Source: Chromatiales bacterium
GTDB lineage: Bacteria; Pseudomonadota; Gammaproteobacteria; RBG-16-57-12
DNA: 44,172 nt
Assembly: GCA_026989455.1 (NCBI GenBank)
Contig: JALSJH010000092.1
Coordinates: 1 to 44,172 of the forward strand
Direction: 5' to 3'
The notes beneath the pieces are model-generated. The model was not told the origin of the DNA, did no database searches, and saw nothing but the letters and a program-made list of their open reading frames with translations. This document shows, piece after piece, positions 21,048 to 35,332 of the stretch (position 1 is the stretch's first letter; each line of letters opens with the position of its first letter). Position numbers and translations under genes: made by a program.

Positions 21048-21206
21048 GGAAGCTCTGATTTAAGTCTGGATAAATTTAGGCTGAGAGGAAATTGTTTTCA
21101 TCTGTTCCGAAATGCGCAGCAATAGTCGCTCTATTGGTGCAATTTTCGGGATAAATGAGGGCAATTTCAGCCAGCATAAAACGTTCATGACTTGACCAGA
21201 GTTTCC
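21048..21206. mobile_element. MITE-like element with terminal inverted repeats, 159 bp
   Basis: The left end reads GGAAGCTCTGATTTAAGTC and the right end, read inward on the other strand, reads GGAAACTCTGGTCAAGTC; these align with few mismatches. There is no coding frame of note inside. TTAA follows the right end (21207-21210); the left flank is GCTA, so no clear target duplication is seen. Both ends recur at 31959-32029, and the left end again near 35316-35332, showing that this is a genomic repeat family. It is probably a non-autonomous derivative of a DDE-type insertion sequence whose family cannot be named safely. Confidence 0.65.
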
Positions 21207-30053: not shown

Positions 30054-31973
30054 ATGCCAAATGATGAAGAGCAAGCACTTCAATGGAAGAAGAGATATTT
30101 TTCTGCCCTAGAAAAACTAGAACAAGTTGAACAGCAATCGGCCGACACAGAGACCCTGCTTCGCCGCAGCTTGTCGCGCATCAGCCTCGCCCTTGACGGG
30201 TTTGATGGCCAACTAGACAAACAACTCGATTCACTGCGCAATAGCATTCGCAGTGGCCGAAAGCCACTCTATATCGGCCAGCTCTCTGAGGAGATCAGCA
30301 CACGCGGCCAAGCGGTCAGCCAGCAGCAGCAATCACAACCCAAAAACCCGCAACTGCTGCTCTCACTACTGGAAAAACTGACACTCCCCAGCGCACTTCA
30401 CAAGCAGCGGACAATACTTCGCAAAGAGCTTAGCCACAAGCACGCCGAGCAACAAATTAAGACTCACATTGACGCGTTGGCACTGCTACTGCGCGCCGCG
30501 CAAAATGCAGAAAAAACCGACACTGACACGCCAGCAACATCCGCACAACCAGCGCCCCATACCTCCTCGCAAAAAAAATCGGAATCAGAGGGTGGTTTTT
30601 TATCTCGCCTGTTTACGAGCAGTGAAAAGCAGCACAAAGATGATACAAAACCCCAAATTGATACCCAGCCACTTAAGCAACTACTCAGCGAAGTCTCCCT
30701 ACCCAGCCCCTATGCAGAGCAACTGAATGAGATCAATTCAAAATTCAACAGCTCAACTGATGAGGCAGATTTAAACCAGCTGGTGAGTCGACTGGCTGAG
30801 TTGCTCAGCAAGTTACCCGAGGAGCACAATCAACCCGGCGACACCGAGGTGGAGAGAGAGCAGCCAAGTGAGACGGCTGAAGGGATACTTTTACAACTTC
30901 TGGAACGCATCACCTTGGTCGACCCCTACGCTCAGGAGCTTGAAAAACTGCGGGAAACAATATTAACCACCGAGAAAGATCAACTCGACTTCAGTCAAAT
31001 CCTGGAATCACTCGCTCGCTTAATCAGCCATGCACAATCACTGAGCCAAAGTGAAAAACAGGCACTTGAAGGGTTTTTGCTCAATATCACCGATACCCTC
31101 GACCAGATTGACAGCAATATCCGGGGGGCACAGGGACATCAGAATCAACTCCGGCAGAGTAGTGAAAAGCTCGACAGCGCGGTTAAAACAGAAGTCAGCG
31201 ATATGCAAACATCGGTACTCGAAATGAATGACCTCACGGAGCTTAAGCAGTGCATTCAATCACGACTGAGCACCATCAACCAACATCTCGACAGCTTCAA
31301 AAAAGAGAATGAAACACGCCATGAGCAGATGGAGCACGCCATGGAGTCGATGGTAAACCAGATAATAAAAGTTGAGTCGGAATCAAATAGCCTACAAAAA
31401 GCACTTGAAGAGCAGCGTAACAAGGCGATAAAAGATCCTCTGACCGGTGTCAGCAACCGCCTCGCTTATGAGGAGTTTATTCAGACTGAATATAGTCGTT
31501 GGCAGCGATTCCAGCACGGCCTCACCATGATCATTTGGGATATCGATCACTTCAAGCGCGTCAACGATAATTTTGGGCATCAGGCGGGGGACAAAGCGCT
31601 GACAATCGTCGCCCAGCTACTCAAAAACAGACTACGCAAAGTCGACTACCTTGCCCGCTTTGGCGGCGAAGAGTTTGTCTCACTGCTACCCGAAACAGAG
31701 ATAGAACCCGCCCTGATGGTGGCTAATAAATTACGTGAAGCCGTTGCAAAAACGGAATTTCACTTTAGCGATAAGAGCGTACCACTGACCATCTCTTGTG
31801 GTCTGGCGCAATTCCGTGAGGGTGACACCCCAGACACCGTGTTCCAGCGAGCAGATGCGGCACTCTACCAAGCCAAGGAGGCAGGGCGTAACTGCTGCAA
31901 AAAAGAGGGGGAGACCGACAAACCTGCACTGGGCGGGCACACCGATCGCTCTCGTCAAGGAGTCTCTGATTAA
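30054..31973 (+). CDS. Diguanylate cyclase with N-terminal repeat region (DgcH-like)
   Basis: GGDEF protein of 639 aa that should make cyclic di-GMP. The C-terminal domain (about 460-618) begins DPLTGVSNRLAYEEF, has IIWDIDHFKRVND, the active site GGEEF at 537-541 and an intact inhibitory site RKVD at 528-531, five residues before it. The N-terminal 450 residues are soluble, Gln/Glu-rich, with no membrane segment. They contain four degenerate copies of a LLxxLLExxxLxxPYAxxL unit near 36-66, 101-150, 206-255 and 278-330, then a coiled coil (about 350-460). Position after dsbA matches Pseudomonas PA5487 (DgcH). The last codons and stop lie in a repeat element at 31959-32029. Confidence 0.92.
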   Translation: MPNDEEQALQWKKRYFSALEKLEQVEQQSADTETLLRRSLSRISLALDGFDGQLDKQLDSLRNSIRSGRKPLYIGQLSEEISTRGQAVSQQQQSQPKNPQLLLSLLEKLTLPSALHKQRTILRKELSHKHAEQQIKTHIDALALLLRAAQNAEKTDTDTPATSAQPAPHTSSQKKSESEGGFLSRLFTSSEKQHKDDTKPQIDTQPLKQLLSEVSLPSPYAEQLNEINSKFNSSTDEADLNQLVSRLAELLSKLPEEHNQPGDTEVEREQPSETAEGILLQLLERITLVDPYAQELEKLRETILTTEKDQLDFSQILESLARLISHAQSLSQSEKQALEGFLLNITDTLDQIDSNIRGAQGHQNQLRQSSEKLDSAVKTEVSDMQTSVLEMNDLTELKQCIQSRLSTINQHLDSFKKENETRHEQMEHAMESMVNQIIKVESESNSLQKALEEQRNKAIKDPLTGVSNRLAYEEFIQTEYSRWQRFQHGLTMIIWDIDHFKRVNDNFGHQAGDKALTIVAQLLKNRLRKVDYLARFGGEEFVSLLPETEIEPALMVANKLREAVAKTEFHFSDKSVPLTISCGLAQFREGDTPDTVFQRADAALYQAKEAGRNCCKKEGETDKPALGGHTDRSRQGVSD

Positions 31974-32029
31974 GTCTGGATGAATTTAGGATGATGCAAG
32001 CACAAAGCATTCATAACTTGACCAGCGCC
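31959..32029. mobile_element. Short terminal-repeat element, deleted MITE copy
   Basis: The left end GGAGTCTCTGATTAAGTC with TGGATGAATTTAGG, and the right end GCATTCATAACTTGACCAG, match the two ends of the 159-bp element at 21048-21206. Only about 70 bp remain, so the centre is missing. The TAA of its left end is the stop codon of the diguanylate cyclase gene. Confidence 0.6.
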
Positions 32030-32053: not shown

Positions 32054-32500
32054 TTATTCCAACACTGCTTGAGAGAGACTCATTTTAAGTGCTCCCGTCT
32101 GATCAACAACCTGAACCCCTTTATAGTTTTGCGCTGTTAGCGCCAACAGTAAGCAGGGTCGTGTCACCACCTGAGCCATCATCATCCCTGGCGGCGGGCT
32201 ATTCCAGGCTACCTGAATTGATATTTGACCATCCACTACGGTGGTGGTTTCACTCAGTAGCGCCAACGAATATCCGGCACTGCGCTGCTGCCCCATACTG
32301 ATCAATAACAGCCGGGAACCACCCACCGCAAACTGCTGATAGAGCTTACCACCCTGCAACCACTCAACGCCCATTTCAGCGCTACCACAATACGCACTCT
32401 GCATCAGAGCTTTCACCCCAACTTGCGGAGGAAGCCGATCACCGGCAATCACCGCAAAGGCCGTCATGATAGCGATCATTGCACCGAACAGCTTAATCAC
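32054..32500 (-). CDS. Exported PrcB-like protein
   Basis: Protein of 148 aa with a signal peptide (about 1-19, hydrophobic IAIMTAFAVIA). The mature part has LLLISMGQQRSAGYSLALLS, IQVAWNSPPPGMMMAQVVTR and YKGVQVVDQTG, which fits the PrcB C-terminal domain pattern (GxxxxxGYS, then PPxG, then a hydrophobic strand and a closing VxxxD). In Treponema denticola PrcB is a part of the dentilisin complex with the subtilisin PrtP. Here it starts at a GTG inside the last codons of a subtilisin gene (8-bp overlap), so the two are surely co-expressed. It may chaperone, anchor or inhibit the protease. The family call is by pattern recognition only. Confidence 0.7.
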   Translation of the reverse strand: MIKLFGAMIAIMTAFAVIAGDRLPPQVGVKALMQSAYCGSAEMGVEWLQGGKLYQQFAVGGSRLLLISMGQQRSAGYSLALLSETTTVVDGQISIQVAWNSPPPGMMMAQVVTRPCLLLALTAQNYKGVQVVDQTGALKMSLSQAVLE

Positions 32501-35108
32501 TTAAGCGCCACCTTTTTAATGCCTCTTTTTGTTCCAAACCTTCACCAAAAAACCCTTTATTAGTGACCGATAAGCGCAAGCCAATACCCACGCTAAAGTC
32601 CACATTCACCCTTGGCCGGTCAACCTTTAAAAGCTCAATAGCGCCATAAAAGGGGTATCCACCACAGCTTTCACCGCGATCACAAATAGAGTAGTCATTA
32701 TCGCCATCACTCCCCGCTAAAATTTCATAGCTTCCTGACTTAACACCCTCAAATCGATAGTGGTATTGGCCATCAACTGCCGCCACCGCCATAGAGTAAC
32801 GGCTTAGGTTGCTATCCTGCTCAAAGAGAGCTACATAGAGATAACCGGCATCCGCCACCATTGTCGATGTTAAGCGCTGCACGGTAACTGGGAGGGTATA
32901 CAGACCACTCCCAACATTGCTGACAAAGGTGATCGTAGCACTGTAGTTGGCATCCTCAGTCAGCAGTGAGCGGTCGATGGTCGCCACATAACGCCCCAGC
33001 CCCTGCGCATCGGTGGTACATTGCTGCGCCGAGTCTCGCTCACAATCAACAGATAACCAGGCCTCACTACTGCTCGGCGAGCTGATGGCGGGTGAGCCAC
33101 CCCCCAGATTACTCACATCAAATAACAACCACTCATCAACCAGCCCAAAATCGATACTGCGCGGGGTTGAGTAGAGCAGTGGCAGTTGATTACCTCCCGC
33201 CGCCTCTTTCGCTTCTAACACCGCTTTATAGGCATCAATCAACCCATAACCGAAAGCGTCATCGCGGCCCGGACTACCCAGATCAGTAGTCAACCGACCC
33301 GCCTGCAACCAGGCCTCAAAAATACTGTTTGTCATGGCAGGGTAAATGGTCTTCATTAACGCCGCCACACCCGCCACATGGGGGGAGGCCATTGAGGTGC
33401 CTTGCAGGTAAGCGTAACCATGAGCCACACTCCCCGCCACCACTTCACCCGCCGTACTCAGGATGCCATCGGGAACACCATCCCGATTGAAATCCGCATC
33501 GGTATCACCTCCCGGTGCTGCAATATCAATGTAACTACCGTGGTTTGAATAGGAGGTGAGCTGCTTATCTGCACCCACCGCGCTCACGGAGATGACACCC
33601 GTCAGTGAGGCCGGATACATCGGCGTTGAGCTGCCATCATTGCCCGCTGCCGCAACAACAACAATCCCCTTGTCGATTGCAGCCGCAACAGCGGTCGCCA
33701 CTGCATCGCTTCGAGAGACCCCGCCCAGGCTCATATTAATCACACTGGCCACATCCTGGTCAGCCAATTGAATGCCTGAAGCATTGGGCAGACCCGCCGC
33801 ATAGTAGATCGCCTGGGTAATGTCGTACGACGAACCACCCAGTGAGCCGAGCACCCTGAGTGACATCAATTTAACCGGCCATGTGCCCGCAACACCAGCC
33901 ACACCTTGTCCATTATTGCTGTTAGCTGCCACCGTGCCGGCAACATGAGCACCGTGGAAAACATAGTAGGGGTCACCACCATGCTCATCGGTTGGATCCG
34001 CATCCCGACCATCACCATCACCTGAATTTTGCAAGTCACTCACAAAATCATAGCCCGAGGCAAGTTCTTGCCCCGCAAGGTCGGGGTGATTGGGCAAGGT
34101 GCCACTATCAATCACTGCAACAATCGCCGGATGAGTCCCGGGTAACAAATCCCAAGCACGGTCAAGGTTAATTAGGGGGTAGTGCCACTGGCGATTGTAA
34201 TACTCATCATCCACCACTGCGGTAGGCTGGTAGATGTAGTTGGGCTCTACAAAGGCCACCCGGGGATCTTTCGCCAACGCCTTAATCATATAGAGCGTCT
34301 CTCGTTTTCGCTGCTGCAAAGGTGTCAGCCCCAAAGCCCCCATAGGAGCTGACTGAACACCCAAGCTCTTTAACGACGACAACCGTGCGCTAGGCTCTTT
34401 GGGCAGATGCCACAACTGGATGCTGCTCTCAGCCGCTTGTTGTCTCTTTAAGCCATATTTATTCATCACTGCGCGGGAATCCGCACTCGCCTCTTTTAAG
34501 GCAATAACCGCCTCACCCTCAACGAACGCACTGTTTGTGGAGAAGCCGCCCTGGCTGGCAAACTCGTTAACACCAATATTTAACGTATAATTAGAGGCAC
34601 CCGCATAAGCATGCACCTGAATATAGTAGTGACCCGCATCGGTTACAATCACTTGCTCTGTCGCGGTAGTACCGAGCGACTCATCAACCACCTGCTCTTG
34701 AAGATCATAGATAATCAGATCCAGGTCATTATTGTTAGAGGACCAGTCAGAGATGGTCAATGTAACCTGCTGGCCTGCGATCAAATCGACCCGAAAAACA
34801 TCATCACGATCACCACTCAAAAATGAGCGACCCTCCGCACCGCTGCCCGCGCCATTCACATACCCGGCCAGATTCAGTGGGTTACCCACAAGCTGAGCCA
34901 TTGAAAAACTGTCATTCGCCAAATAAGGAGCCTGCGGATCATTGACATCACTGTCAACCATAGAGCTATCTGCGGCGGAGATCACACCACTAACCGTGTA
35001 AACCTCATCATCGTCATCTGTACAAGCGGTCAACAGCATACTGGCTGTGACAATAGCCAGACAAATTTTCAAACCAAGACCTGCCACTTTAGAGAACAAC
35101 ATAAGCAC
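32493..35108 (-). CDS. Subtilisin-family (S8) lipoprotein protease
   Basis: Secreted serine protease of 871 aa. A lipoprotein signal ends LLTAC (Cys29), followed by an Asp-rich linker. Next come a pre-peptidase (PPC-like) beta domain at about 70-180, a propeptide-like region at about 195-298 ending RVAFVEPNYIYQP, and the S8 domain at about 305-635. The triad is Asp334 (VIDSGTLPNHPDL), His385 (HGAHVAGT) and Ser572 (GTSMASPHVAG), with oxyanion Asn490 in AAGN. The C-terminal part has a beta-sandwich at about 645-745 and a smaller domain with paired Cys that looks like a carboxypeptidase regulatory fold. Thr at +2 of the lipobox favours the outer membrane. It overlaps the PrcB-like gene. Confidence 0.95.
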   Translation of the reverse strand: MLMLFSKVAGLGLKICLAIVTASMLLTACTDDDDEVYTVSGVISAADSSMVDSDVNDPQAPYLANDSFSMAQLVGNPLNLAGYVNGAGSGAEGRSFLSGDRDDVFRVDLIAGQQVTLTISDWSSNNNDLDLIIYDLQEQVVDESLGTTATEQVIVTDAGHYYIQVHAYAGASNYTLNIGVNEFASQGGFSTNSAFVEGEAVIALKEASADSRAVMNKYGLKRQQAAESSIQLWHLPKEPSARLSSLKSLGVQSAPMGALGLTPLQQRKRETLYMIKALAKDPRVAFVEPNYIYQPTAVVDDEYYNRQWHYPLINLDRAWDLLPGTHPAIVAVIDSGTLPNHPDLAGQELASGYDFVSDLQNSGDGDGRDADPTDEHGGDPYYVFHGAHVAGTVAANSNNGQGVAGVAGTWPVKLMSLRVLGSLGGSSYDITQAIYYAAGLPNASGIQLADQDVASVINMSLGGVSRSDAVATAVAAAIDKGIVVVAAAGNDGSSTPMYPASLTGVISVSAVGADKQLTSYSNHGSYIDIAAPGGDTDADFNRDGVPDGILSTAGEVVAGSVAHGYAYLQGTSMASPHVAGVAALMKTIYPAMTNSIFEAWLQAGRLTTDLGSPGRDDAFGYGLIDAYKAVLEAKEAAGGNQLPLLYSTPRSIDFGLVDEWLLFDVSNLGGGSPAISSPSSSEAWLSVDCERDSAQQCTTDAQGLGRYVATIDRSLLTEDANYSATITFVSNVGSGLYTLPVTVQRLTSTMVADAGYLYVALFEQDSNLSRYSMAVAAVDGQYHYRFEGVKSGSYEILAGSDGDNDYSICDRGESCGGYPFYGAIELLKVDRPRVNVDFSVGIGLRLSVTNKGFFGEGLEQKEALKRWRLSD

Positions 35109-35186: not shown

Positions 35187-35214
35187 AAAAAAAAGGCGAC
35201 CCGATGAGGTCGCC
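35187..35214 (-). terminator. Terminator-like hairpin between groEL and the protease gene
   Basis: On the minus strand GGCGACC, loop TCATCG, GGTCGCC is followed by eight T. It is a strong terminator 150 bp past the groEL terminator and 80 bp before the protease start. No gene ends between the two, so it probably acts as a second stop for groEL read-through. Confidence 0.85.
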
Positions 35215-35315: not shown

Positions 35316-35332
35316 TAAATTCATCCAGACTT
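35316..35332 (-). repeat. Third copy of the MITE left-end core
   Basis: Minus-strand AAGTCTGGATGAATTTA is identical to the core at 31971-31987 and one base from that at 21063-21079. It lies next to the groEL terminator. No matching right end was found nearby, so it is a fragment. The surrounding 35109-35395 gap holds this, two terminators and nothing else recognised. Confidence 0.45.

What the first reader, a model, noticed from the sequence alone, without database searches (positions are those of the whole stretch)
32054..35108. Lipoprotein subtilisin overlapping a PrcB-like gene
The two stop/start regions overlap by 8 bp. In Treponema denticola a PrcB lipoprotein works with the subtilisin PrtP (dentilisin). 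A similar pair in a gammaproteobacterium, with a triad-complete protease that has a PPC-like domain at the N-terminal side, may be an unstudied surface protease system.
Basis: partly seen in the sequence, partly recalled or inferred. Interest (0 to 1): 0.55.

Follow-up and report, generated by a model that had tools for sequence, protein, structure and literature searches.

The report
Two-gene protease–PrcB lipoprotein pair
A bacterial protease gene is followed directly by a gene for a small partner protein related to one that a gum-disease spirochete needs for its own surface protease, and the same pair recurs in many families of gammaproteobacteria.

Summary
Two minus-strand ORFs, an 871-aa S8 protease (32493-35108) and a 148-aa protein (32054-32500), overlap by 8 bp. 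The small protein matches PrcB_C above Pfam's cut-off (32.9 vs 24 bits). The protease has an intact triad (D334/H385/S572) and a lipobox. Neither protein reaches the curated dentilisin cut-offs.

The pair is widespread. In 369 sampled genomes of the class, 42 carry this protease family, and in 22 of them (13 family codes) a PrcB-like gene follows immediately on the same strand. A separate scan keyed only on the protease's C-terminal domain gave 25 of 80 loci. Where a PrcB gene lies in the fetched stretch around this protease it is always directly downstream; the commonest spacing is a 4-bp overlap.

Most pairs encode two lipoproteins, but the window's genus lacks the PrcB lipobox. PrcB proteins of the pair share two cysteines and fall outside a well-supported 21-row clade whose members never neighbour this protease family.

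Best reading: a two-gene, dentilisin-like protease system without PrcA, in which PrcB stabilises the protease, or in most species tethers it, after its lipidated N-terminal part is cut off. That mechanism is inferred, and many relatives of the protease lack PrcB.

The parts
32493..35108 (-). S8 (subtilisin-type) protease, 871 aa, GTG start: lipobox C29, PPC-like domain (about 60-180), fervidolysin-like propeptide (about 190-295), catalytic domain (about 300-632), BACON/Ig-like domain (about 640-747), small C-terminal beta domain with the ICDxGESCG motif
32054..32500 (-). PrcB-like protein, 148 aa, GTG start: signal peptide without lipobox cysteine, PrcB_C domain (65-120), conserved cysteines C38 and C116
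32493..32500 (-). 8-bp overlap of the protease's stop region and the PrcB-like gene's start
35195..35214 (-). terminator-like hairpin with T-run between groEL and the protease gene; suggests that the pair is its own transcription unit (consensus scan only; the number found in the region is not above the shuffle expectation)

Best explanation
This is a two-gene operon for an exported lipoprotein S8 protease and a dedicated PrcB-family partner, a dentilisin-like system without PrcA. Proposed working: the protease is exported as a lipoprotein precursor (lipid, PPC-like domain, propeptide, catalytic domain, Ig-like and C-terminal domains). It cuts itself near residue 297 and so loses about 270 N-terminal residues together with the lipid. 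The PrcB-like protein, made in step from the overlapping gene, binds the protease and keeps it stable; in most species its own lipid can also hold the mature enzyme at the membrane. In the window's genus the partner has no lipid anchor, so there it would act as a soluble stabiliser. Shown by sequence: homology, conserved adjacency and overlap, lipoboxes, triad, domain order. Inferred: binding, stabilisation, self-cleavage, tethering and surface location.
For: PrcB_C and S8 matches. Pair immediately adjacent in 22 of the 42 class genomes that carry this protease family, 13 family codes; PF14343 and the protease co-occur in 25 genomes against about 6.6 expected (odds ratio 13, no correction for kinship). 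25 of 80 loci in a scan not selected for PrcB. In the distinct set 42 of 116 assessable proteases have PrcB directly downstream on the same strand, 15 of 42 with a 4-bp overlap; none of the 74 others has a PrcB elsewhere in its fetched stretch. PrcB proteins of the pair share two cysteines (40 of 40 complete rows), and a 21-row clade of solitary-type PrcB proteins excludes them. Lipobox in the protease in 35 of 36 full-length paired rows, in PrcB in 38 of 42 assessable including the window (one of the 38 read by eye). Solved homologues begin at about query residue 297, so the lipidated part would be removed on maturation. In Treponema denticola, a non-polar prcB deletion leaves prtP transcribed but PrtP protein undetected, PrtP-N with its lipid is released, and PrcB keeps its lipid (PMC8167434, passages and section 13 read). 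The window's genome has a type II secretin.
Against: 74 of 116 distinct relatives of the protease have no PrcB beside them, so PrcB cannot be needed by the protease as such. PrcB is scattered over the protease tree (21 changes, at least 10 forced). Other PrcB-family proteins sit beside unrelated genes such as MgtE, HemW-like, SRP54 and T2SSE. Tree-distance correlation of the two partners is weak once close pairs are left out (r 0.41 overall, 0.12 without pairs over 60% identical). Tethering by PrcB cannot apply in the window's genus (no lipobox). No complex was modelled.
Confidence: 0.52

Rival explanations
1. The PrcB-like protein is a protease inhibitor or guard: a beta-sandwich that blocks the protease until it has left the cell.
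For: The model is a compact beta-rich fold, a type common among protease inhibitors (recalled). Gene pairs of protease plus inhibitor are a known arrangement (recalled). A second, different secreted S8 protease also sits 43 bp upstream of a PrcB gene (G138).
Against: In T. denticola loss of PrcB abolishes PrtP protein rather than raising activity. No member of A1 matched an inhibitor family in Pfam at E<=0.1. 74 of 116 relatives of the protease have no adjacent PrcB.
Confidence: 0.2
2. PrcB_C proteins are general extracytoplasmic binding proteins, and in this operon the partner serves a shared substrate or envelope site, not the protease itself.
For: Most PrcB_C genes in the class survey have no protease neighbour, and those tested sit beside unrelated genes; PrcB_C rings in the Thermus, Deinobacterium and Methanocaldococcus control genomes.
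Against: The paired PrcB proteins share two cysteines and are always directly downstream, often overlapping, as expected of a dedicated subunit.
Confidence: 0.22
3. Chance adjacency of two unrelated genes.
For: None beyond the scatter of PrcB on the protease tree.
Against: 22 genomes in 13 family codes and 25 of 80 loci of a separate scan with the same order, strand and tight spacing.
Confidence: 0.01

Closest known systems
Dentilisin (PrcB-PrcA-PrtP) of Treponema denticola
   Same: Acylated S8 protease encoded with a PrcB-family protein in one operon; acylated N-terminal part ahead of the activation cut; in most relatives of the pair both proteins are lipoproteins by motif.
   Different: No PrcA beside the pair, protease gene first instead of last, both NCBIfam equivalog cut-offs missed, a PPC-like N-terminal domain and BACON/Ig-like plus ICDxGE[SA]CG C-terminal domains in the protease; the window's own PrcB lacks the lipobox.
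Secreted subtilases with solved structures (5yl7, Pseudoalteromonas arctica; AprV2, AprB2 and BprV entries)
   Same: Closest catalytic domains by sequence (5yl7 E 5e-52).
   Different: The matches cover only the catalytic domain (about 300-634 of the query); the search shows no PrcB partner and no N-terminal PPC-like domain.
SphB1 of Bordetella
   Same: An acylated subtilisin, named in PMC8167434 as the only other one besides PrtP.
   Different: An autotransporter by that paper; the protease here has no autotransporter match over a curated cut-off and ends in small beta domains. SphB1 itself was not compared.

Membership tests
PrcB_C domain family (PF14343) | Profile match over the gathering cut-off | tested here: met
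   32.9 bits vs 24; 55 of 55 aligned proteins match at E<=0.1
Dentilisin PrcB (NF033596 equivalog) | Score over 125 bits | tested here: not met
   14.3 bits, matching only profile positions 114-176 of 176; 50 of 55 aligned relatives match this profile at E<=0.01, best 4.3e-20
Dentilisin PrtP (NF033595 equivalog) | Score over 300 bits | tested here: not met
   108.3 bits, catalytic domain only
Dentilisin operon | Three genes in the order prcB-prcA-prtP | tested here: not met
   Two genes, protease first; the flanking genes are a plus-strand GGDEF-type gene and groEL (labels read by eye). PrcA was not sought elsewhere in the genome.
Dentilisin-type complex | Physical complex of PrcB with the protease on the cell surface | not testable with these tools
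   No complex was modelled and no localisation data exist here
Peptidase S8 (subtilases) | S8 profile and Asp-His-Ser triad with oxyanion Asn | tested here: met
   E 1.9e-49; D334, H385, N490, S572 invariant in 37 aligned proteins
Bacterial lipoproteins (protease) | Signal peptide with lipobox cysteine | tested here: met
   C29 in the window; 35 of 36 full-length paired relatives by a stated rule, the exception begins at a contig edge. Motif only.
Bacterial lipoproteins (PrcB-like protein) | Signal peptide with lipobox cysteine | tested here: not met
   No cysteine in the signal region in the window, G001 or G002; present in 38 of 42 assessable paired PrcB proteins, one of them by eye
PPC domain (PF04151) | Score over 25.9 bits | tested here: inconclusive
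   19.5 bits in the window; 23 of 37 aligned proteins match at E<=0.1, best 5.3e-10

The most novel reading that the evidence does not exclude
PrcB proteins of this two-cysteine group are dedicated handover anchors: the protease leaves its own lipid behind when it matures, and PrcB takes over as its membrane tether and stabiliser. This mechanism would be shared by spirochete dentilisin and a widespread gammaproteobacterial system, with the window's genus as a natural variant that dropped the tether and keeps only the stabilising part.
Probability: 0.3. Interest if true: 0.6.

Novelty: new variant of a known kind. Interest (0 to 1): 0.45.

Why it matters
A 2021 paper on dentilisin states that PrcB has no homologues outside oral Treponema and that the only other acylated subtilisin is SphB1 (PMC8167434, section 13). 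Here a lipoprotein-type subtilase with a PrcB partner is found across at least 13 family codes of one class. That makes the open question of what PrcB does to its protease testable outside a pathogen, and it offers natural controls: close relatives of the protease with and without PrcB, and PrcB with and without a lipid anchor.

Tried and rejected
A single-protein scan of genome contigs with the PrcB-like protein found no relative, and plasmids gave none; both probably reflect how fast this protein diverges, not absence. Fold searches of the PrcB-like model gave no PDB match with E<=0.001; the best second-look row was a NigD-like protein with Z 4.5, rmsd 4.3 over 91 residues, too weak to use, and an unlisted family is not excluded. 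The idea that PrcB resembles chagasin-type inhibitors (recalled loop motifs) found no sequence support among 55 members and was dropped as untested. A natural protease-PrcB fusion, which would have allowed modelling of the contact, was looked for among long PrcB_C frames; the long frames look like over-extended ORFs in GC-rich DNA (by eye). The mirror-tree signal was too weak to claim co-divergence. A test for SLAM-type lipoprotein export was uninformative, since no control genome rang either.

Counts and what was dropped: the distinct protease set of 118 excludes rows under 190 bits or not reaching query residue 700, does not include the window itself, and sets aside 2 rows that end at a contig edge. 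rest on my own ORF calling; starts were not refined, so gaps below about -60 are over-extended starts. The 80 loci are the best 80 of 228, and at least 4 of them (L150, L165, L210, L211) are the same contigs as class-survey genomes; removes such duplicates. The class sample is an even draw of 369 genomes, not all.

Full report
Observation. The window holds an 871-aa ORF (32493-35108) and a 148-aa ORF (32054-32500), both on the minus strand and sharing 8 bp. The larger is an S8 protease (E 1.9e-49) and the smaller carries PrcB_C over Pfam's cut-off. The protease stands after groES-groEL (labels read by eye) on the same strand with 287 bp between, including a terminator-like hairpin. The next gene beyond the PrcB-like gene is a plus-strand GGDEF-type gene (read by eye) that ends facing it. 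So the pair looks like a transcription unit of two genes. In the two other genomes of the genus the overlap is 4 and 16 bp, so tight overlap is kept but its length is not.

Anatomy of the protease. An alignment of 37 proteins shows: a lipobox cysteine; a segment with a DSDVNDP-type motif; a PPC-like domain (23 of 37 match PF04151 at E<=0.1); a fervidolysin-like propeptide (24 of 37); the catalytic domain with invariant D334, H385, N490 and S572; a BACON-like domain (BACON_2 in 15 of 37); and a last domain with ICDxGE[SA]CG. A model of residues 640-871 (mean pLDDT 81) has an Ig/BACON-like first half that matches many Ig-type domains (for example 2qsv, Z 10.7, rmsd 2.6 over 96 residues). The nearest solved enzymes align from about residue 300 with their residue 3 or 4, which puts the mature start near 297. 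Self-processing there would remove the lipid, the PPC-like domain and the propeptide. That cut is inferred.

Anatomy of the partner. The 148-aa protein has a signal peptide and two cysteines, C38 and C116. Its model is beta-rich and of high confidence (mean pLDDT 89.2, 55 sequences) with no clear PDB match. Among 42 PrcB rows of pairs, both cysteines are present in 40, and the other 2 are truncated; among 37 PrcB rows without the protease beside them, 12 have both, 23 neither, 2 one; 3 rows at contig ends and 1 row beside another subtilase were kept apart.

Conservation. In the class sample of 369 genomes, PF14343 was found in 58. The protease family, defined as at least 190 bits and reaching query residue 700, was found in 42 (search). 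25 genomes had both, against about 6.6 expected (Fisher odds ratio 13, uncorrected for kinship). In 22 genomes the two genes were adjacent; 2 of those 22 (G054, G292) were missed by PF14343 and seen only from the neighbour. They spread over 13 family codes, counted by hand. A second scan of the GTDB species collection with a motif of the protease's C-terminal domain gave 228 relatives, of which 80 were kept; 25 of the 80 had PrcB directly downstream. Paired loci include marine gamma HTCC2148, Candidatus Competibacter and Contendobacter, two Ectothiorhodospiraceae MAGs and a Nitrospirae MAG; the Haliea, Thiomargarita, Beggiatoa-like and Thioalkalivibrio loci had the protease without PrcB (one Thioalkalivibrio locus, L154, ends at the contig edge). 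Over the distinct set, 42 had PrcB, 74 did not, 2 could not be judged. PrcB was not found elsewhere in the fetched stretch of the 74. In a sample of 398 genomes of the whole phylum PF14343 was found in 8; their neighbours were not examined.

History. On the protease tree the PrcB label needs 21 changes (shuffled mean 35, none of 500 as low; at least 10 forced), so the partner has been lost or gained many times. On the PrcB tree a clade of 21 rows (SH-aLRT 99) holds only PrcB proteins not beside this protease family, one of them beside another subtilase. Upstream neighbours of 10 unpaired PrcB genes that I tested, of the unpaired loci, were not proteases. In G103 and G318 the protease stands alone while tandem PrcB copies lie elsewhere. 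Distances of the two partners correlate at r 0.41 (largest of 2000 permutations 0.25), but at only 0.12 once pairs over 60% identical are left out, so long shared history is not shown.

Lipoproteins. By a stated rule the protease has a lipobox in 35 of 36 full-length paired rows, and PrcB in 37 of 42, plus one more by eye that the rule's length limit missed; one PrcB is truncated. The exceptions are G001, G002 and L076, and the window too has none (so 38 of 42 assessable including the window). The window's genus thus lacks the PrcB anchor while keeping the pair.

Mechanism. In T. denticola a non-polar prcB deletion leaves prtP transcribed but PrtP protein undetected, PrcB interacts with PrtP, the acylated PrtP-N piece is released on activation, and PrcB keeps its lipid and is proposed to anchor the complex (PMC8167434; passages, section 13). 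The layout here fits the same logic. Against it stands the frequent absence of PrcB beside close relatives of the protease. I give the stabiliser/anchor reading 0.52, an inhibitor 0.2 and a general binding protein 0.22.

Literature. Searches for PrcB with dentilisin (14 papers, listing), PrcB with subtilisin and lipoprotein (3 papers, listing), PF14343 (none), 'protease complex subunit PrcB' (none) and a five-term query (none) showed no study of this pair in the held library. One paper notes a PrcB-domain protein in Kosmotoga (PMC5674127, passages). Automatic annotation of such genes in public databases was not examined.

Verdict. A real, conserved two-gene protease system, a new variant of the dentilisin kind; its function is untested.

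Noticed in passing
window 31972-31988 (-), 35316-35332 (+), 21062-21079 (-): A 17-base stretch occurs as perfect inverted copies on both sides of the protease-PrcB module. It is part of a dispersed repeat: 81 copies with at most 1 mismatch in the own genome, none of the reversed control. Of the copies looked at, most share about 70 bases on one side and a short AATCAGAG-type stretch on the other.
   Followed up: partly
L068:3504-6027 (G138): A different secreted subtilase (I9 propeptide, S8, Big_7, MAM-like end) lies 43 bp upstream of a solitary-type PrcB gene: a second, separate subtilase-PrcB neighbourhood.
   Followed up: partly
L066, L067, L069; L099, L107: Solitary-type PrcB genes recur downstream of HemW-like radical SAM genes (3 loci) and of SRP54 (2 loci), contexts without proteases.
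   Followed up: no
L139:2283-5348 and L108:2-271 (G128): The protease frame runs into a MacB/FtsX-like permease end while a cut PrcB gene starts another contig: probably a misjoined contig or a rearrangement.
   Followed up: no
L128 (G039), L130 (G302): Two protease copies stand in tandem, with no PrcB beside them.
   Followed up: no
L212 and L192: Records titled Synechococcaceae cyanobacterium and Klebsiella pneumoniae (both MAGs) carry proteases that group with gammaproteobacterial ones, the first with Contendobacter: mis-binned or mislabelled, or transferred.
   Followed up: no
   Followed up: no
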